Positions 35,885-50,027 of a DNA stretch of 56,090 nucleotides are shown here, piece after piece. The position numbers and the translations under genes are program-made. Source of the stretch: Candidatus Brockarchaeota archaeon (GTDB taxonomy: Archaea; Thermoproteota; EX4484-205; JAAOZP01). Each line of letters begins with the position of its first letter. Positions within the stretch are counted from its first letter, which is position 1. The stretch lies in NCBI GenBank assembly GCA_017601395.1, contig JAFNIQ010000005.1, positions 1-56,090 on the forward strand, given 5' to 3'. Below the pieces are notes generated by a model. It was not told where the DNA came from and did not search any database. It saw only the letters and a program-made list of their open reading frames with translations.

Positions 35885-36583
35885 ATGGTTACTGCGGGAA
35901 AGATATTCAGGCTGGACGAATACTTGCCTCAGAGCGATATTGCTCAGAGGCTTAAGGGCTACAGGGTTGAAACCCCGCTTGAAGGGGTTGACCTGAGCCT
36001 GGTGACTGAGATAGCTGAGTTGAGGGCTTCTCAAAACATGCTGGAGGGGGTTATTAGCAGGGACGTGCCCTTGACGATCAGGAGGAGGGATAGGACGGAG
36101 ATAGTTGCTAAAACGGTCGACTCGGTTTTCAGCTTCGTCTTCAGGAGGAGGAGAGTCTTTCTCATAGTTTTGGAGAAGAAGCCGGTTGCAAACATGGTTG
36201 CCAACATGTTCAGCCAAGTGATCTTTCTTAAAAGCGGCAGGATTGTCGAGGCGAGGATTTCTCCCGAGGTGATGCTGAACTATCATAATGCGAACAGCGA
36301 TGCTGCTAAAGTGGTTTTCTTCGACGATGTCGACATCCCCAATGTTAAGAAGCTCTCCCTATATGGTCCCTCGCTCGCGAACACTAGCCTGTTTACAGAA
36401 TATCTTAAACATGGGAACATATGGTACATCGTAATCGCGCATAGAAAAACTGGCTTGGTGGCTGGAATAACTAGGGATGCCGTCGTAACGATCTTCAGCA
36501 GGATAGACCCCGCTTCATTCATAAGGTTCTCCGTCGAGGAGATCATTCCCCTGATTGAAGAATCCGAGACCCCTAAGTCGTAG
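35885..36583 (+). CDS. Conserved unknown protein, partly duplicated at 43.9 kb
   Basis: 232 residues, soluble, family not recognised. The middle is basic (TIRRRDRTEIVAK, SFVFRRRRVFLIV), and the C-terminal half (LFTEYLKHGNIWYIVIAHR, TGLVAGITRDAVVTIFSRI) looks like a small alpha/beta sensor fold, somewhat like roadblock or profilin-type modules, which is only an impression. The last ~75 codons occur again at 43868-44119, where an internal 121-bp part is inverted. This copy is complete and reads through normally. Confidence 0.6.
   Translation: MVTAGKIFRLDEYLPQSDIAQRLKGYRVETPLEGVDLSLVTEIAELRASQNMLEGVISRDVPLTIRRRDRTEIVAKTVDSVFSFVFRRRRVFLIVLEKKPVANMVANMFSQVIFLKSGRIVEARISPEVMLNYHNANSDAAKVVFFDDVDIPNVKKLSLYGPSLANTSLFTEYLKHGNIWYIVIAHRKTGLVAGITRDAVVTIFSRIDPASFIRFSVEEIIPLIEESETPKS
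36388..36508 (+). repeat. 121-bp segment, copy 1 (reference orientation)
   Basis: Inside the gene at 35885-36583. It begins CCTGTTTACAG and ends CAGGATAGAC. The reverse complement is found at 43912-44032 with one mismatch in 121, while the DNA on both sides of the two copies is homologous in direct orientation but only about 85% identical. Confidence 0.9.
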
Positions 36584-36637
36584 AGAGCTTATTTACGGTT
36601 ATGCTTAAATATCTTTTACTGAATAGATGAAGCGGAA

Positions 36638-37300
36638 ATGATACAGGAGTTAAGAAAAAAGTTCACGGATTCGATAGAATATCTTCGCAAGATGAGTTTC
36701 TTTCAAGATTACTCTGAATTATCCTCGGAGGAAATCTTCAACGAGATACTTAAGGGTGAAATTACATACGCATATTGGTGGGAAGAGTGGGAGCGGAGGA
36801 AACCTCGTCTCCGAGGACCTCTCCATCACATCATGGAAGGATATGAGGAGGAATTGATGAAGGCCAGCGATGCCTCCATAGACTATATCATAATTCCATT
36901 CGATACTAAGAGAACGGTGACGGAGGACTATGAGACATGGTTGGGTAAGGGGTTAGGCATAACTATGTTGAAAAGGTATGCCAAGATATCTCGAGGGGTC
37001 TTCCAGCCTAAGGACATAGAGGAGGAGTGTAGCTTTCCCAATTTCGATCCCGAGTTGGGAAAGGAATGGTTCTCCTACAAAGTTTACTTTATCTTCATGA
37101 ACGAGAGACATTACACAAAAATCATCCTATGGCACGATTTCTTCGAGGATCTCGGTCTGAAAAAGATAAATGAGTTGATAAAGGATACAGGATATCAATA
37201 TTATCGCATTGATCATGAACTAGTCATGGTTGTAGTGCTGACTGAGGAGGAGGCAAAAAAACTAATGAAGGAGAGGAACTGGAGGTTCCGCCCGGTCTAG
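36638..37300 (+). CDS. Unknown 220-residue protein abutting the giant gene
   Basis: Soluble and acidic, with an aromatic-rich segment (EITYAYWWEEWERRKPRLRG) and a beta-rich C-terminal half (WFSYKVYFIFMNERHYTKII). No family recognised. Its stop codon is directly adjacent to the stop of the convergent giant protein gene (37300/37301), and both are inside the interval bracketed by the duplicated segment. TGCTTAAATATC about 35 bases upstream is the likely TATA. An immunity or partner role for the giant protein is possible but only inferred from position. Confidence 0.55.
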   Translation: MIQELRKKFTDSIEYLRKMSFFQDYSELSSEEIFNEILKGEITYAYWWEEWERRKPRLRGPLHHIMEGYEEELMKASDASIDYIIIPFDTKRTVTEDYETWLGKGLGITMLKRYAKISRGVFQPKDIEEECSFPNFDPELGKEWFSYKVYFIFMNERHYTKIILWHDFFEDLGLKKINELIKDTGYQYYRIDHELVMVVVLTEEEAKKLMKERNWRFRPV

Positions 37301-40300
37301 CTATCCCACTGGCTTGTGATAATAGACTGTTGTTCCGCCGATTATGTCGAAGTAAACGACAACGGCCCAGTAGCCCTCGATCTCACCAGGCCCGATGATC
37401 ACGGGGTTACCGTTACCATCAGTGAATTGAAGTTTGCCTCCCTTACTGAATAATTCATTAATCGAGTTCTTATATTTTATCGCGTCTTCTGTGGCACTAT
37501 CGAGATAATCGCCGATGAGATTCGAACTCTTAGTTGATTTGATCGAAATGATTATGTACTCACCACTTAACTTTCTACGGAGTATCACATCCAGCTCTCC
37601 CGTCTCAGTTGGCACTCTCGTGCGCACGAATTCCGTATCCTCTAGCCCAGATATCTGATTGTTTATTGCTGCATTTGCAAATATTTCCTCCCCAAAGCTT
37701 CCCAATGCCTTCGGTGAGGCATCCACGATCTCTTGGAGTTGCTCCGGGACTAGCATTGAGAGTGACCTGTGCCATATTTCGACGCTCTTTAGCACCGTAA
37801 TGTCATCAGGTATTTTAACTAGAAGTTCGCTAGTACTACCCATAGCAAATTTTTTCCTACCGGAGCTGGTTTCGTAACATGCTAGTAGCAGCAACTCGCC
37901 GCTTCCAACCCTATGCCTTAGGTCCTGAACGTTATCATATCCAAAGATTTCCTCCAGCTCTTCAATTAAAGAGATACTTGATTGACCTCTCTTTAGCTGG
38001 ATATTAAGCTCATAAGCCCCCCACACGTTCCAGTCCTTGATATGAATTGGAACTTTCATCGGATGAGGCTTTCCATATTCATAGTCTATAATCAGCGTGT
38101 TCCCCTCAACTCTAAATTCAATAACAGGATGCGCCTGTCCCCCGATAAGAACAGAAACAGTCTTGTCCTCATGGAATATAAGATATGTCTCGCGTCCCCC
38201 TTGCTTTCCGATGCTCTTATTTTTGAGCTTTACCTTCACGGATGCCCTATGATTATTACTCCACGTACTCGGCTCAACTTCCCCTAGTTCTATCTTCCCC
38301 CATGAGCCGTCCGGCCTCATTATCCAGAAACCTTCAGAAAAGCTGAAACGGTAGTTATTACCTATACACTTGAAATTTAATACGTAATTATATTGGAGGA
38401 TGGTGACTTCCACGTCCTCTCCTACTAGCTCGGCCTTAAACTCTTTTGGAATGGTAGTGTGAAGCTTGCTGGCCGCATTCTTCTTATGGCTCCACTCAAA
38501 AATCTTCCCATCTTTTCTCTTCACCCTTATTAAGTAAATCCCTGGCTCTAGCGTAATGTCCGATCTGCTGATCACACCATAATCGGGCACGGTTTCACTA
38601 AACTTGGCGAGGACTACTTCGATATCGGCCTTCACCCTGAGCAATATCTCCTCAAACTTGAGTCTAAGTTCCTCGGGCGATAGCTCTGCAATCTTTGATA
38701 ACAGCTCTGCCATCGCCTTTAGCCTTTGCTCGTCGAGTTTCGGCAACATTTCCACAAGGCTTTCCACCCATGCATTGAAGGCTTCTGAGTTCTTCAAGAT
38801 TATCGTGATCAGCACGTCGGCCATGATCTTGCCATATTGCCGTATTCCAACGACCTTAACATATTTATCGAGGAAATCAAGTCCATTCTTGGAGGAGCTC
38901 ATCTTAGTCAGGACGCCCTTAAGGTCCTCAAGCCGATCCTTCTCTAGGTTCAGCTCCGCCAGTTCTAATATAGTCTCGGCCGCCTTATCCATTTCCTCCG
39001 CATCGAGCTCCTTCATCAACTCCACGATGATTTTCGCCGCGCTGCTCGATGTTGATAATATCCGAAGGTAGCCATCAAGGAGCTTAACAGTGCTCTCGGA
39101 ATTTCTGAGATTAATCAGCACCCTTCTGAAGACAGTGAGCTCGCTCTCATCAAACTCGAGAAACTTAGGGATTATCTCAGTGATTACTTTCTTCAATAGC
39201 TCTGAATCTTTAATGTTGCCTGTTAACTTCAGGAATTCTTCAGCAAGTCCCCTGTCTTTACTACTTATTTCTTGAATATCCTTGAGGAACTTCTCGAGCT
39301 TCTCATGCCCTAGGTTCTTAATTGACTCCCCATACGCCCTAATTAAGCTGAAGAAAGTTTCTTCCCTAAGCCCCAATCTCCCCGATATCTCCAGCGCCCT
39401 ATCTACATAATCTTCAGGAGATCCCATGTTATCCAGCACAGATTTGATAGATGGCTCATTCTCCACGATTGAGCCTAAGTATTTCGTAAAGCCTTCGCTT
39501 TGCTCAAAAATCGCGATCATGCATGCGAGTCTCCTTGCCACGAGTCTAGCTCTCACCTGCTTGATTAGTAAGGCTCCGAGATCCCATATCGCTGGAGTTA
39601 ACCAGTTGTAGATTCCCCTCAATACCTCCTTTATCTTTCCACCTAGGGAGAGGAGCTTTGGCCCATGGCTGAGGAACTTGTAAAAGATCACCTCGTATTC
39701 TATCAGGGAGGTCGCGGCCCCGACCAGTCTTCCTATTGCCCTCCCTTTCTCGTATTCGGTTGCATCCTCTCTGCCAAATGCTATAAATATGTCTCTCACC
39801 GTGATGTCTGCGAGGAGGTCGAGCCCGGTGTTCCCCATGACGAGTAATTGGCTCTCCTTTACCTTCTCCTTAAGCCTCTGGAAGAAAGAATAGGTCCGCA
39901 TATACCCGAAGTAGGAGGCTCTCTGTGAGAACCCTTCGAACTCCTCAGCAACTTTATCCATCACTGCATAAGTTGAGTAAGCGTCAAACAATTCCCTGAC
40001 GTTCGCTAGCGTGCCTACCATTAGACCTATGAGCACTCCTGTTGTAACTATCTTTTTTACGTAATGAAGCAGAGAGCCTCCAGCAGTCGGTATTGCCAGT
40101 ATGATCATTACTGTTGCGGTGATTATTATCCCGGGCAGTTTTTCCTGGACTCCATCCCAGAAGCCCTTCCAGAATTCTGAAACCTTACCCGCAGTACTCA
40201 CCAAGAGCGTTGAGATAATCCTGTTTCCGTATTTCAGGCGGATGAGAATTAAAGGGCTTGCGCTCTCAAGCTGAATAATGTTCATAGGGATTGAGCCATA

Positions 40301-42409
40301 GGCCGGGATGCTGAGGACACTGCTCTTCGGCAGAACTCCAACTATTGGTCCCTGGAGGACTTCGAGCTCGTAAGCCATATTCCTTGCAGCATAGTTCTTG
40401 ACTAAGACACCCTTAACCAGGTCTCCTTGGCATATGAGCGGACGGTAAATGAGCTCTATTGTTTTCCCATGCTTAACCCTTGTCGTGGCTTTGTTAAGAT
40501 CCCACTTCTTAACCCCCGTATCCTCATACTTATAGTCATAGTCTTCCCAGTTGCTATGCTTCAGTTGCTCGTAGAGATCATCGCTGACTGTTGCGATTTC
40601 AGACTGGTTGAGAACCTCCTCCTTTAACAGCTTAACCTCGTAGCCCGGTGGTATTCTGCTAGGCTCTAATCTCTCGTCTTCGTTTAAGTGAAAGAGCTTC
40701 TTAACTTCGTCCTCTCTCAAAACTCTTTCGCATAGGAAGCGGGGCTTAACGTCGAGGAGCATGTATCTCACTTCCGGAACCTTGGGGAAAATCTCCGCAA
40801 TGTTGCTCGCATTCCCTAAAGTCAGCGTGAAGCCATTGGGGGAGATGGGGATTAAGCTTAGTCCGTCGAAGAAACTCATGGATGGAGGTGCCAGACAATT
40901 CTTCATCAGGTAGAGCTTAACTTGCGTCGCACCCTGATAGCTGGGGACAAAGACCCTCTTGGTCTCCTCATAGCCTTCAACCTCTACTAAGTACGTCCTC
41001 CATTCCTCCGGAGTTACGAAGTTTGTGGTCGAGATCGTTATAAGCGCTGTGTTCGCATGCTTCCTCCCCTCAAGATCGTAGTAGACCGCTGTAACGTTAA
41101 CTTTAGCGATGGGAGTGAGAAGCTTGGTTATTACGTTTCCTTCCCAGGTGTGCCAGACCCTTCCGACGTCAAGCTGCTTCTCCTCAACATCGCCGGTTAT
41201 GAATAGCTTAACGTCTCTGGCCTCCTGCCCGCCGGTGTTCACCAAAGTTATCGTGAGGTTCGCGAACTTAGCTAAGGCCTTGGCTTCGAGCTCAACCCTC
41301 AGCTTAGGAGCCTCAGGTAAAACTGTTATGACGTAGGTTACTGTTTTCCCACCGTTCCAGAACACTACGTCCAAGCTCTTGGGCTCGACGACGGCAAAAT
41401 AGATGGTAATCTGGTAGACTCCTGGCCTCTTAGCTCTAAGGTATAGGTATGATGCTGGGCATCCCGAGCCATATGAGAAGCCAACTGGAGGGGGAGTCCA
41501 CGCTTCAAACGCTTCTTCGTCCGAAAACCTTGCTCCAAGCAGGACCCTGAAGCCTTTAGCCTCCTGAGGATTCCTTATCTGAGCACTTATCGTTATTACA
41601 TCTCCCATTTTGACCTTCGTAGATGAGATCCCCGTGTCAACGACAAGGGGATCATGTGCGGGGAGCAGGACTCTGAACTCGCATACCTGTGACTCTACTG
41701 CTTCACGCGTCTCCTCGAAGTGACCAGACACAGCAATGATAAAGCTCTCAAAGCCAAAGTTACCTTGGGTTAAGTTAGAAAAGAGCCCGATGTTCATCCT
41801 AACCGTCTTGTTGAACACCTTCCCGGTCTTCAGGTCGATGAAGGTGAGAGTGTAAGCATCGGGGTCGACGACCCTAACCAGGTAGGTTCTTCTCTTGGGA
41901 TACCTATAGAGGATGTGGAAGAGGTTGGTTCCGTTGCTCTCATACTTTATCGAGTCTGCGTCAACATCTTTTCCATGAATATCAACCACACTATAGGGAA
42001 TTTCTACGGATACGCTTCCATCGTTGCTTTGGCAAACCTGAATTTCATCATACTTGGGGATTATCGTGTAGTTCTTGAACTCGTAGCTTATCCGCGACGG
42101 TAGCTCCAGAGTGTCATTAGCGTCGATCATCGCTCTTTGTATCCCATCCTTCGAATAACCTTCCGAAACTAGTTGGGCCACAAAGAGCCAAAGCCTTTTC
42201 GCAAGATCAGTCGGAAAACCTTCTGGTATAATGAAATTAGCTTCGGTTATTGAGCCGCTGGGTATTTGTCCTCTCTCAAGTTCTTCCTCAATCTCCTTGA
42301 GAGCAGCTAATGCATTCGCCTCTCCTCCGCGAACCCTGACGTATAGCATGGTATCAAAGTGTGAGGTTAGTATGAGGATTAAGATGATTATAGCTAGTAC
42401 CCTACGCAT
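37301..42409 (-). CDS. Giant membrane/surface protein with C-terminal nuclease-like domain
   Basis: About 1,702 residues from the ATG at 42409, which overlaps the end of the upstream gene; the frame is open to 42442. Order: N-terminal hydrophobic segment (RRVLAIIILILILTSHF); ~750 residues outside with immunoglobulin-like/CARDB-like beta domains (DVITISAQIRNPQEAKGFRV, LTITLVNTGGQEARDVKLFI); two membrane helices at ~775-825 (PGIIITATVMIILAI, GVLIGLMVGTLANV); ~450 residues of helical repeats; a beta domain; and a final ~130 residues with FGEEIFANAAI, TGELDVILRR and YIIISIKST, the layout of a restriction-endonuclease-like fold, though the usual Glu before x-Lys is Ser. The combination resembles polymorphic toxins. 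Function unproven. Confidence 0.65.
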   Translation of the reverse strand: MRRVLAIIILILILTSHFDTMLYVRVRGGEANALAALKEIEEELERGQIPSGSITEANFIIPEGFPTDLAKRLWLFVAQLVSEGYSKDGIQRAMIDANDTLELPSRISYEFKNYTIIPKYDEIQVCQSNDGSVSVEIPYSVVDIHGKDVDADSIKYESNGTNLFHILYRYPKRRTYLVRVVDPDAYTLTFIDLKTGKVFNKTVRMNIGLFSNLTQGNFGFESFIIAVSGHFEETREAVESQVCEFRVLLPAHDPLVVDTGISSTKVKMGDVITISAQIRNPQEAKGFRVLLGARFSDEEAFEAWTPPPVGFSYGSGCPASYLYLRAKRPGVYQITIYFAVVEPKSLDVVFWNGGKTVTYVITVLPEAPKLRVELEAKALAKFANLTITLVNTGGQEARDVKLFITGDVEEKQLDVGRVWHTWEGNVITKLLTPIAKVNVTAVYYDLEGRKHANTALITISTTNFVTPEEWRTYLVEVEGYEETKRVFVPSYQGATQVKLYLMKNCLAPPSMSFFDGLSLIPISPNGFTLTLGNASNIAEIFPKVPEVRYMLLDVKPRFLCERVLREDEVKKLFHLNEDERLEPSRIPPGYEVKLLKEEVLNQSEIATVSDDLYEQLKHSNWEDYDYKYEDTGVKKWDLNKATTRVKHGKTIELIYRPLICQGDLVKGVLVKNYAARNMAYELEVLQGPIVGVLPKSSVLSIPAYGSIPMNIIQLESASPLILIRLKYGNRIISTLLVSTAGKVSEFWKGFWDGVQEKLPGIIITATVMIILAIPTAGGSLLHYVKKIVTTGVLIGLMVGTLANVRELFDAYSTYAVMDKVAEEFEGFSQRASYFGYMRTYSFFQRLKEKVKESQLLVMGNTGLDLLADITVRDIFIAFGREDATEYEKGRAIGRLVGAATSLIEYEVIFYKFLSHGPKLLSLGGKIKEVLRGIYNWLTPAIWDLGALLIKQVRARLVARRLACMIAIFEQSEGFTKYLGSIVENEPSIKSVLDNMGSPEDYVDRALEISGRLGLREETFFSLIRAYGESIKNLGHEKLEKFLKDIQEISSKDRGLAEEFLKLTGNIKDSELLKKVITEIIPKFLEFDESELTVFRRVLINLRNSESTVKLLDGYLRILSTSSSAAKIIVELMKELDAEEMDKAAETILELAELNLEKDRLEDLKGVLTKMSSSKNGLDFLDKYVKVVGIRQYGKIMADVLITIILKNSEAFNAWVESLVEMLPKLDEQRLKAMAELLSKIAELSPEELRLKFEEILLRVKADIEVVLAKFSETVPDYGVISRSDITLEPGIYLIRVKRKDGKIFEWSHKKNAASKLHTTIPKEFKAELVGEDVEVTILQYNYVLNFKCIGNNYRFSFSEGFWIMRPDGSWGKIELGEVEPSTWSNNHRASVKVKLKNKSIGKQGGRETYLIFHEDKTVSVLIGGQAHPVIEFRVEGNTLIIDYEYGKPHPMKVPIHIKDWNVWGAYELNIQLKRGQSSISLIEELEEIFGYDNVQDLRHRVGSGELLLLACYETSSGRKKFAMGSTSELLVKIPDDITVLKSVEIWHRSLSMLVPEQLQEIVDASPKALGSFGEEIFANAAINNQISGLEDTEFVRTRVPTETGELDVILRRKLSGEYIIISIKSTKSSNLIGDYLDSATEDAIKYKNSINELFSKGGKLQFTDGNGNPVIIGPGEIEGYWAVVVYFDIIGGTTVYYHKPVG

Positions 42410-43583
42410 CTTTTCCAAACCCCTTTTCTTTGAGGCTGGCACTACGCATTCCTTTTACAAATATGATGAACAAAGAGATTGTAAAAACTGCTAAGGAGAC
42501 CGTTAAGAACCTCATCATATTAAGTTCTTCGGCTAGCTTCTTGGCTTCCTCAACTTCATTTAGACATCTCTTTTCATAAGCCTCAAGCGAAGCTTTTAGA
42601 ACGGTTATTTCAACCTCCTTGTTGTGGAGCTTATGTCCAAAGGTTTCTCGCTCCAGCCTAGAGTTATTCAGCATCGCCTTCAGGAACTTGTTCTCATCTA
42701 TAAGCCGGAGATATTTGGAGAAGATGGTTTCGCTGAGCTTGACAGTTAGAGTTGAGGTCGAGTTTAAGGTTCTAGCGCTCAGCATAAGCCTAACTGGTTC
42801 CTTGAGACCTGAGAACATTGACCAGTTAAGCATCACATTGTAAAACCCATATTCATATGTTACTTCATGATCCTTTATTAATGAGTCAGCTTGTAGAGTT
42901 GCCTTAACTTCCGCGATATTACCTGAAGCAACTATCCTAAACGTGAGCTTAAAGCCCTCTTCTCTTACGGAAATAGAATCTACAATTATCTCAGCAAATT
43001 CGACCGCTTCCTCTCCTTCAACCCTTATCATTGCACTTCCCTCCTCATACTTCTTCAATCCTTGCCTGTAACAGTCAACAAGGAAGCTTCTTCCAGAAAT
43101 CATATCACTGTCAACTGCGACCCAAAGCTGAGTCCCATTGGGCTCAAGCATGGGGTAGACGCATACGTAGAAATTGCCATTCACGACGACGTTTGGCAAT
43201 GGGACCTTAGCCCAATCCAGGGTCGCGTTCTCAAAGTGGTTGGAGATGAGGATGGAAGACCTGAAAATCGCGTTAAAATCGCTATCCCTCACCTCTATGA
43301 TGAAAGATTTCTCGCCCTTGACCAATGCGAAGCCGTAGATGAGAAGAGCGGTTATCCTCCACCTAAGGGCGGGGGGAGTGAATTTAACGGCCATCCCGTT
43401 GGGATAGTAATCGCTCCAGAAGCATTCCGCACCCCCATCGTCATAACGCAATAGTAGACTTGAATCGGGATAGATGCATGGGGTTTGAGCCAGCATCAAT
43501 AGGGACAGAAGCGCGATCTTCATTGCTTGAGCCGCGGATTTTATCTTTCCTCCAGTCCTTGATTTATCGGCCTCGCTCCTCAT
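42402..43583 (-). CDS. Secreted, membrane-anchored protein upstream of the giant gene
   Basis: From the ATG at 43583 the product has ~393 residues: a basic N terminus and signal peptide (MKIALLSLLMLAQTPCIYPD), a beta-sandwich-like domain (LLRYDDGGAECFWSDYYPNG) resembling sugar- or ligand-binding jelly rolls, a second beta domain, a coiled coil (LRLIDENKFLKAMLNNSRLE) and a C-terminal membrane helix (FLTVSLAVFTISLFIIFVKG). The frame opens at 43751, but a TATA element (43610-43619) ~30 bases upstream favours 43583. Overlap with the next gene indicates an operon, so this protein is probably a partner of the giant protein. Confidence 0.65.
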   Translation of the reverse strand: MRSEADKSRTGGKIKSAAQAMKIALLSLLMLAQTPCIYPDSSLLLRYDDGGAECFWSDYYPNGMAVKFTPPALRWRITALLIYGFALVKGEKSFIIEVRDSDFNAIFRSSILISNHFENATLDWAKVPLPNVVVNGNFYVCVYPMLEPNGTQLWVAVDSDMISGRSFLVDCYRQGLKKYEEGSAMIRVEGEEAVEFAEIIVDSISVREEGFKLTFRIVASGNIAEVKATLQADSLIKDHEVTYEYGFYNVMLNWSMFSGLKEPVRLMLSARTLNSTSTLTVKLSETIFSKYLRLIDENKFLKAMLNNSRLERETFGHKLHNKEVEITVLKASLEAYEKRCLNEVEEAKKLAEELNMMRFLTVSLAVFTISLFIIFVKGMRSASLKEKGFGKDA

Positions 43584-43609
43584 ATCATTAGAGGAGGTTT
43601 GAGGATATG

Positions 43610-43619
43610 TTTTTATAGC
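43610..43619 (-). promoter_or_regulatory. TATA element of the surface-protein operon
   Basis: GCTATAAAAA on the minus strand, 27-36 bases upstream of the ATG at 43583. It drives the two-gene module. Confidence 0.6.
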
Positions 43620-43639
43620 ATGAGGTAAGCGAAAATTTC

Positions 43640-43654
43640 CGCTGACAGTCAGCG
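43640..43654. promoter_or_regulatory. Inverted repeat upstream of the module promoter
   Basis: CGCTGAC-A-GTCAGCG, a perfect 7-base inverted repeat around one base, ending ~21 bases upstream of the TATA element. Its position suits an activator site. Confidence 0.5.
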
Positions 43655-43867
43655 AGAATTTACCAACGGAAGATTTATATAGTAGCTTCCATCGTTGAGC
43701 CCAAAATCGCCATTTTAAACTCAGTGCATTTTGACTAAAGAAAATGCGCATCCCATATCCAGCTAGCTCCCTTGAGGACTACACGTCAAGTTCATAAACC
43801 TCTACGCTGTCAACCTTAAGCCTGAAATGCCTGTCCACCACCTACTTAAACCGTCTGGAATAGCATG

Positions 43868-44119
43868 TGCTAGAAGCTCTCGCTGTACGGGCCCTCGCTC
43901 GCTAACACTAGGTCTATCCTACTGAAGATCGTTACGACGGCATCCCTAGTTATTCCAGCCACCAAGCCAGTTTTTCTATGCGCGATTACGATGTACCATA
44001 TGTTCCCATGTTTAAGATATTCTGTAAACAGGCCTGCTTCATTCATAAGGTTCTCCGTCGAGGAGATTATTCCACTAATAGAGGAATCTGAAGCGTCCAA
44101 ACCTGAGAGGAAAGCCTAG
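43868..44119 (+). pseudogene. Partial second copy of the 35885-36583 gene with internal inversion
   Basis: Homologous to the last ~75 codons of the gene at 35.9-36.6 kb. The left flank (LSLYGPSLANT) and right flank (PASFIRFSVEEIIPLIEESE) are in the forward orientation with roughly 85% identity; the centre, 43912-44032, is inverted. If the centre is turned back, the frame becomes continuous through SLFTEYLKHGNIWYIV to a stop at 44117-44119. The N-terminal part is absent: homology ends just left of 43868. Confidence 0.85.
43912..44032 (-). repeat. 121-bp segment, copy 2 (inverted)
   Basis: The reverse complement of 36388-36508 with one mismatch (G to A at its tenth base). Junctions are sharp: CACTAG|GTCTATCC on the left and AAACAGG|CCTGCTTC on the right, and at each the flank agrees with copy 1. 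Confidence 0.9.
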
Positions 44120-44164
44120 GCACGTCCATCTTCAACGCCTCCTTTAAAATAAAAGTCTAAGGTT

Positions 44165-44755
44165 CTATATATTGGAGAGTAGAGCATCGTATTCCTCGTC
44201 GGTTAAAGCGTCGAGTTTCTTAAGGCTTCCCACCAGGCTTTTAAAATCGATCAACTCGTGCAACGTTATTCCCTTGCTTCTCAGCCTCTCCGCAGCACTC
44301 TTGCTCTGACACATTATTACGGCAGCCTGCTCAACAACCCCTCCTTCTGAAACGATTTTACTGGCCGTCCCCAGTATCTGCCTGCCTGTCACGACGGAGT
44401 CATCGATGACTAGAACCCTATCCCCCATTTTCAACGGTCCCTCCACAAGCTTCCCCCTGCCTCTTTCCCTAATGAGCAGCATAGGCTTACGTGTCTTGAC
44501 GCAGAGGAATGACGCGTAGGGTATTCCGGCCAACGGTACTCCTGCGACGAACTCGAAGCTGTTCAACCCGACTTTCTCCCTAACGACTCTGAGAAGCCCT
44601 GATGCGACCCGGAGGAAAACAGGCGGATGGCTTAGAATCGTAGTCAGGTCGAGTACGAACGGTTGTAGAACCCCTTCATCAGTTTTATCAGGCCATGTTA
44701 AGAAGCCGCCTGTTTTAACGAGGGTTTTCGCCACGAGGTCGACTAACCTGTACAA
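44165..44755 (-). CDS. pyrE: Orotate phosphoribosyltransferase
   Basis: Forms OMP from orotate and PRPP. The PRPP motif VLVIDDSVVTGRQI is clear, with FVAGVPLAGIPYASFLC and the loop MLLIRERGRGKLVEGP typical of OPRT. 196 residues, normal. The start is a TTG with an AT-rich CTTAAAG about 20 bases upstream and GCTTAAAGATA ~40 upstream. Confidence 0.88.
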   Translation of the reverse strand: MYRLVDLVAKTLVKTGGFLTWPDKTDEGVLQPFVLDLTTILSHPPVFLRVASGLLRVVREKVGLNSFEFVAGVPLAGIPYASFLCVKTRKPMLLIRERGRGKLVEGPLKMGDRVLVIDDSVVTGRQILGTASKIVSEGGVVEQAAVIMCQSKSAAERLRSKGITLHELIDFKSLVGSLKKLDALTDEEYDALLSNI

Positions 44756-49369: not shown

Positions 49370-50027
49370 TTATTTACGCTTTCTGAGGAGCATTAAACCA
49401 TCTTTCTCGAAGACGTATTCGAAACCCGCTTCCAGAAGCTCTTTAGCCTCCTCTATAGTCTTCGCGACTTTAACCGTAAACTCGTCATTCTCCTCACCTT
49501 AGAGAGCCTTTTCAACCTGGATGTAGAGCATTGTGTTTTCAATATCCTTATGGCCGAGCATCTCTTTAACGTGCAAGATATCCTTAGTTTTATGGTACTC
49601 CATAGTTGCTTTCCAATGCCTAAAGGTGTGGAAGGTTATTCTTAGAAGCCTAGGGTTATTAAGCTTCCTCGCCAGCCTCTTACGTTGGGCCTCGAAATTC
49701 GCCTTAAGCGCCCTATATTGCGTGGGGAAAAGCCTCTCGTTAATCTTAGGCAGCGTGTTGAGCATCCCCATGAGCCTAGGGCTTATTCTGAAGATCCTGG
49801 GGTTAGAGTTCTTCTCAGGCTCGTTCAGGATTATGACTTTCCTCTCCAGGTCTACATCTCTCCAAGTTAGCCTCAACGCTTCTCCTATCCTCATGCCGGT
49901 TTCTTTAAGCAATTGTAGAAGTATGGAGACCTTGGGACCACAGCCAGCTATCAACGCATCCAACTCGCTCTCCAAGGGTATGAAGGGCAGGGGCCCTCTT
50001 ATGAGATCTATATTGTTGCAATATTTT
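49370..50027 (-). pseudogene. Tyrosine recombinase (archaeal integrase) remnant
   Basis: The catalytic half is present: the first Arg in KETGMRIGEALRLTW, HTFRHWKATMEYHKT (HxxR), MLGHKDIENTMLYIQ (His and Tyr). A TAA at 49499-49501 ends the open frame, but the same frame goes on with ENDEFTVKVAKTIEEAKELL, then EAGFEYVFEKDG to RKRK and a stop at 49370; that tail is common in archaeal integrases. Upstream of residue LPFIPLESELDALI the frame reaches NNIDLIRGP and hits a TGA at 50028-50030, so the N-terminal core-binding domain is gone. The break coincides with the end of the ABC permease gene. Confidence 0.82.

What the first reader, a model, noticed from the sequence alone, without database searches (positions are those of the whole stretch)
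36388..44032. A 121-bp segment is inverted inside the second copy of a gene, almost identical while the flanks have diverged
43912-44032 is the reverse complement of 36388-36508 with one mismatch in 121. The flanks of the two copies are homologous in direct orientation but only about 85% identical. Turning the segment back restores a continuous frame in the second copy. Breakpoints are sharp and have no long repeats (only an imperfect CTAGCCTG/CTATCCTG pair near the ends). A recent inversion together with localised conversion, or an active invertible element, would explain the higher identity inside.
Basis: seen in the sequence. Interest (0 to 1): 0.8.

Follow-up and report, generated by a model that had tools for sequence, protein, structure and literature searches.

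The report
Inverted scar beside a toxin-cassette insertion
In a hot-spring archaeon, a 7.3-kb gene cassette that looks like a toxin with its antidote was inserted at the end of a conserved gene, leaving behind a dead copy of that gene's tail in which 121 bases were flipped and made to match the living copy; this is most likely a recombination scar rather than a working genetic switch.

Summary
In detail: 43912-44032 is the reverse complement of 36388-36508 with one mismatch, in exact register between direct flanks that are 88% identical. The "second copy" is not a gene. It is only the last ~245 bp of a conserved archaeal gene (35885-36583).

Six genus-mates (Candidatus Brockarchaeota) carry this gene once, directly abutting the phosphoribosyltransferase gene at 44165-44755. 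So 36584-43871 is an insertion, and the second copy is the displaced 3' end.

The insert looks like a polymorphic-toxin cassette: a large export-type protein with a modular, PD-(D/E)XK-like C-terminus, plus a linked 220-aa partner. It is multicopy in the genus and flanked by target duplications at two other loci. The living gene's 3' end is a foreign allele; the displaced end is native.

The inverted block shares seven non-native bases with the living copy, so its sequence came from there or from the donor. The breakpoints lack inverted repeats, no recombinase lies in the insert, and no gene visibly depends on the orientation. I favour a one-off inverted, in-register conversion during or after insertion. 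An active switch is unlikely. An assembly artefact (about 13%) cannot be excluded without reads.

The parts
35885..36583 (+). Conserved archaeal gene of unknown function (232 aa), copy 1, intact
   Evidence: Found in 37 of 61 genomes searched, own genome included; no Pfam or NCBIfam family
36337..36583 (+). 3' part of copy 1 that looks like a foreign allele
   Evidence: 28 of 244 positions differ from G005, against 3 of 452 upstream
36388..36508 (+). Segment X, ancestral orientation
   Evidence: Same orientation in all six genus-mates that have the gene
36584..43871 (.). Inserted 7.3-kb cassette
   Evidence: Absent between the same two genes in G002-G007
36638..37300 (+). 220-aa candidate immunity protein
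   Evidence: Multicopy in the genus; beside the same C-terminal domain at five other loci
37301..42442 (-). 1713-aa export-type protein with modular C-terminus of PD-(D/E)XK-like nuclease fold; candidate polymorphic toxin
   Evidence: N- and C-terminal parts never together in 32 other loci; motif, profile and model
42402..43751 (-). 449-aa partner protein (probable start 43583 by comparison with L085)
   Evidence: Always upstream of the N-terminal part where both are found
43872..43911 (+). Copy 2, left flank of X (direct)
   Evidence: 35/40 identical to 36348-36387; 2/40 different from G005
43912..44032 (-). Segment X inverted, copy 2
   Evidence: 120/121 to the reverse complement of 36388-36508
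44033..44119 (+). Copy 2, right flank: displaced native 3' end of the gene with its original stop
   Evidence: 0/91 different from G005 over 44033-44123
44165..44755 (-). Phosphoribosyltransferase-like gene, original neighbour of the gene
   Evidence: Adjacent and convergent to the gene in six relatives; related to PyrE models but below their cut-offs

Best explanation
Copy 2 is the displaced, dead 3' end of a conserved gene. It arose when a 7.3-kb toxin/immunity-like cassette, carrying a foreign allele of that 3' end, was inserted: homologous on the gene side and apparently illegitimate on the other. Inside the dead fragment 121 bp were replaced, in exact register, by an inverted copy of the living copy's sequence. 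This happened either in one inverted template switch while the two copies were paired, or as an in-place inversion followed by conversion between the now oppositely oriented copies, which could not run past the inversion ends. Shown: the insertion, the displaced native end, the foreign 3' end of copy 1, the bases shared in X. Inferred: the order of events and the mechanism. It is a neutral scar, not a switch.
For: Six relatives have the empty site with a single direct copy. Copy 1 turns foreign at about 36337 while copy 2's right flank is native. All 12 mismatches in the aligned flanks are at third codon positions, so two working alleles were joined. Seven non-G005 bases in X are shared by both copies. 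Register is exact on both sides. Two other cassettes are flanked by target-derived direct repeats, so the duplication belongs to insertion.
Against: The 40-bp left flank of copy 2 resembles neither copy 1 nor G005 exactly. A 32-bp mismatch-free run lies just right of X, so a conversion tract made at insertion and a separate later inversion is also possible. Known template-switch inversions (PMC8604942) are far shorter and need repeat arms that are missing here. No donor genome was found.
Confidence: 0.55

Rival explanations
1. Two unrelated steps: a conversion or crossover tract of about 164 bp (36380-36543) was made when the cassette integrated by homology, and later 121 bp inside the dead copy were inverted by two breaks joined the wrong way round.
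For: Only two mismatches across 36380-36543 once X is compared in the gene's orientation; exact register fits in-place inversion; breakpoints have only 1 bp of ambiguity.
Against: The native right flank starts exactly at the inversion border, while X carries seven non-native bases; coincidence of the two borders is then needed.
Confidence: 0.2
2. Assembly or library artefact: the strands around the repeated X were mis-joined, and X is really direct (or diverged) at 43.9 kb.
For: Metagenome-assembled genome of 156 contigs; some of its contigs have N-runs of varying length, so it was scaffolded; X is the only long repeat here; no reads available.
Against: No N in the window; both junctions are seamless and exactly in register; copy 2's X has one private base (36499), so it is not simply a pasted copy; de Bruijn assembly needs reads across each junction (general knowledge).
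Confidence: 0.13
3. Active invertible element: X flips in the population by a site-specific recombinase.
For: Inverted orientation, high identity; a tyrosine-recombinase catalytic domain is encoded at 49499-49975.
Against: No inverted repeats at the borders; the 8-mer pair is off-centre. The recombinase ORF is 5.5 kb away and outside the insert. Copy 2 lacks the gene's 5' end, and the upstream region shared with L085 lies inside the cassette, so flipping would control nothing obvious. No relative shows X inverted.
Confidence: 0.04
4. Attachment sites of an integrase-driven element: copy 1 and copy 2 are attL and attR, and the inverted core is part of the integration reaction.
For: 3'-end duplication with a functional replacement end supplied by the element; direct target-derived repeats at two other cassettes.
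Against: No integrase in the insert. The other cassettes sit at unrelated targets with repeats of other lengths, and cassette ends share no sequence. A crossover core must be direct, and here it is inverted.
Confidence: 0.05

Closest known systems
Homology-facilitated illegitimate recombination of effector/immunity modules (Vibrio cholerae T6SS, PMC5361080; E. coli conjugation, PMC3240628)
   Same: Toxin/immunity-type module inserted with one homologous border carrying a donor allele; older gene end displaced downstream
   Different: Archaeal, target is an unrelated housekeeping-type gene; the displaced end contains an inverted converted block, which those reports as read here do not describe
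Template-switch spacer inversion and arm homogenisation (PMC8604942)
   Same: One process can both invert a segment and make two sequences identical, in place
   Different: There the inverted spacers gave 2-5 bp substitutions between arms longer than 9 bp; here 121 bp with no arms, and the two sequences are 7.4 kb apart
Polymorphic toxin systems (PMC3482391) and the VARTIG module of Thermococcales (PMC8416519)
   Same: Large secreted-type protein with constant N-terminus and exchangeable C-terminus, linked small downstream partner, many copies
   Different: No match to Pfam, NCBIfam or PADLOC families; confined to this genus in the genomes searched; no immunoglobulin domain recognised by Pfam; activity untested
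Invertons (site-specific invertible DNA)
   Same: Short segment present in the opposite orientation
   Different: No terminal inverted repeats, no recombinase in the element, no gene obviously controlled

Membership tests
Site-specific invertible element (inverton) | Inverted repeats at the two ends of the inverted segment | tested here: not met
   No arm of 5 bp or more among pairs within about 15 bp of both borders in copy 1; imperfect 8-mer pair is off-centre
Site-specific invertible element (inverton) | Adjacent recombinase | tested here: inconclusive
   None in the insert; a tyrosine-recombinase domain ORF 5.5 kb away at 49499-49975
Site-specific invertible element (inverton) | Both orientations in the population | not testable with these tools
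   No reads available
Integrase-driven integrative element | Encodes an integrase or transposase | tested here: not met
   Only three genes in the insert, none matching an integrase family
Integrase-driven integrative element | Same attachment sequence at each insertion | tested here: not met
   Gene 3' end here, pheS/pheT junction in L067, aminotransferase start in L085
Homology-facilitated illegitimate recombination | One border homologous, carrying the donor allele | tested here: met
   Copy 1 switches from native to foreign at about 36337, within the gene and in frame
Homology-facilitated illegitimate recombination | Other border illegitimate (no or short homology) | tested here: inconclusive
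   Homology to the gene starts abruptly at 43872, but the donor sequence is unknown
Polymorphic toxin system | Constant N-terminus, exchangeable C-terminus | tested here: met
   25 loci share only the N-terminal part, 7 only the C-terminal part, none both
Polymorphic toxin system | Toxin domain of known catalytic fold | tested here: inconclusive
   PD-(D/E)XK-type motif, weak profile hits to Card1 and SfsA, Foldseek best E 6e-3
Polymorphic toxin system | Linked cognate immunity gene | tested here: met
   220-aa family directly beside the C-terminal domain in the window and five other loci; linkage only, function untested
Polymorphic toxin system | Toxicity neutralised by the partner | not testable with these tools
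   Needs expression assay
Template-switch inversion between inverted repeats | Inverted-repeat arms flanking the inverted spacer | tested here: not met
   Only the imperfect off-centre 8-mer pair

The most novel reading that the evidence does not exclude
The toxin/immunity cassettes of this genus move by a transposase-independent route that duplicates 40-245 bp of the target, and inverted in-register copying between the two duplicates is a regular by-product that fixes the cassette in place by removing the direct repeats needed for its loss.
Probability: 0.08. Interest if true: 0.75.

Novelty: new member of a known kind. Interest (0 to 1): 0.38.

Why it matters
The inversion alone is a small scar. 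It points to something larger: an apparently unannotated, genus-wide family of polymorphic-toxin-like cassettes in an uncultured archaeal lineage, where classical polymorphic toxins are reported as rare (PMC3482391). Empty sites in close relatives and target duplications show how the cassettes spread. The shared foreign bases inside an inverted tract also give an unusually clear record of inverted, in-register sequence transfer between repeats.

Tried and rejected
Viral contigs: no relative of the large protein and no exact match to a 23-bp piece of X. tRNA-based integration: no tRNA gene in the window. Inverted repeats flanking another cassette (L070): two paralogous 197-aa genes, not terminal repeats. 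A 17-bp inverted match in L068 was judged chance. Inverted cores at the other two duplicated sites: none, both repeats are plainly direct. Other cassettes with sequence on both sides (L065, L066, L068, L069, L071, L075, L076) show no flanking direct repeat at the sensitivity used. Assembler k-mer size from contig-end overlaps: no overlaps among the contigs held. Papers on intragenic inversions in archaea: none in the library. The fold of the 220-aa protein gave no significant structural match.

Full report
Observation. The inverted match is real and far beyond chance: 36388-36508 against the reverse complement of 43912-44032 is 120/121, E = 3e-58. Flanks match directly at the same offset (7524) on both sides: 35/40 on the left, 52/59 on the right. 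Identity inside (1/121 mismatches) and outside (12/99) differs significantly (p = 7e-4). Two details change. The frame through copy 2 is open as it stands (81 residues), so the frame argument is weak. And copy 2 is only the 3'-terminal part of a gene, starting at 43872.

Context. The gene at 35885-36583 (232 aa) is conserved: 37 of 61 genomes searched, including its own, have it, with no Pfam or NCBIfam family. In six of the seven same-genus genomes (G002-G007) it is found once, running straight into the convergent phosphoribosyltransferase-like gene that here lies at 44165-44755. The seventh, a fragmentary genome (G001), gave no match. Several of these relatives are labelled Candidatus Brockarchaeota. 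So 36584-43871 is an insertion, and copy 2 is the original 3' end of the gene pushed 7.5 kb away.

Which copy is native. Against the closest relative (G005), copy 1 differs at 3 of 452 positions before 36337 and at 28 of 244 after it. Copy 2's right part differs at 0 of 91. Copy 1 therefore carries a foreign 3' end, and copy 2 keeps the native one. All 12 mismatches in the aligned flanks between the two copies are at third codon positions, so they are two working alleles brought together, not one duplicate that drifted. Seven differences from G005 inside X are shared by both copies. The inverted block in copy 2 therefore has the ancestry of copy 1 (or of the donor), although it sits against purely native sequence.

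The insert. It encodes a 449-aa protein, a 1713-aa protein with a hydrophobic export-type N-terminus, and a convergent 220-aa protein. All three are multicopy in this genus and nearly absent outside it in the genomes searched (the 1713-aa protein was searched in the genus only). In 32 other loci the large protein's N-terminal part (25 loci) and C-terminal part (7 loci) never occur together. The C-terminal part sits directly beside the 220-aa family in the window and five other loci, and close to it in a sixth. The C-terminal domain has a PD-(D/E)XK-type motif, weak sequence similarity to Card1 and SfsA, and a confident model (mean pLDDT 87) whose best structural matches include several nucleases of that fold, though none is significant alone. 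The reading as a toxin and immunity cassette is inference from this architecture; no activity has been shown. PMC3482391 describes restriction-endonuclease-fold toxins and notes that classical polymorphic toxin systems are rare in archaea. PMC8416519 describes an analogous hypervariable module in Thermococcales.

Other insertions. G000:C53 (L085) has a cassette between 58-bp direct repeats that include an aminotransferase gene start. G004:C4 (L067) has one between 43-bp direct repeats spanning the pheS/pheT junction, which is uninterrupted in all seven other genomes of the genus set. Targets and repeat lengths differ, no integrase is present, and the cassette ends share no sequence. This argues against site-specific integration. 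It fits homology-assisted or illegitimate insertion, as proposed for effector/immunity modules in Vibrio cholerae (PMC5361080).

The inversion. Exact register on both sides makes casual insertion of a stray fragment unlikely. Copy 2 has no 5' end, and the upstream region that the cassette shares with L085 lies inside the cassette, so nothing obvious is controlled by the orientation. The best account is a single inverted, in-register copying event between the two paired copies, or an inversion followed by conversion limited to the inverted block. Template switching is known to both invert and homogenise short sequences (PMC8604942), but on a smaller scale and with repeat arms that are missing here. 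A conversion tract made at integration and a later unrelated inversion is a live alternative, because a 32-bp mismatch-free run continues to the right of X.

Limits. There are no reads, the genome is a scaffolded MAG, and no donor genome was found. An assembly artefact is possible but would have to create two precise junctions without gap or overlap.

Verdict. The active-element idea is unsupported. The more interesting object is the cassette family that caused the duplication.

Noticed in passing
36584-43871; also L065-L104: Genus-wide multicopy family of polymorphic-toxin-like cassettes (449-aa + 1713-aa proteins, 220-aa partner); N- and C-terminal parts of the large protein are exchanged between loci and unmatched 220-aa copies are frequent.
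   Followed up: partly
L085 1238-1293 and 8441-8498: 58-bp direct repeats (96.6%) flank another cassette in the same genome and include the start of an aminotransferase gene.
   Followed up: yes
L067 4236-4278 and 11334-11376: 43-bp direct repeats flank a cassette inserted between pheS and pheT in a relative; the pair is uninterrupted in seven other genomes.
   Followed up: yes
49499-49975 (-): 158-aa ORF with a tyrosine-recombinase (Phage_integrase) catalytic domain outside the insert; what it acts on is unknown.
   Followed up: no
L070 6416-7201 and 14124-14913: Two paralogous 197-aa genes in opposite orientation flank a cassette in G004; possibly another candidate immunity family.
   Followed up: partly
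L080 4983-5116, 10458-10714: Repeats of about 100 bp, up to 100% identical, one pair separated by a single N: possible assembly duplication in G007.
   Followed up: no
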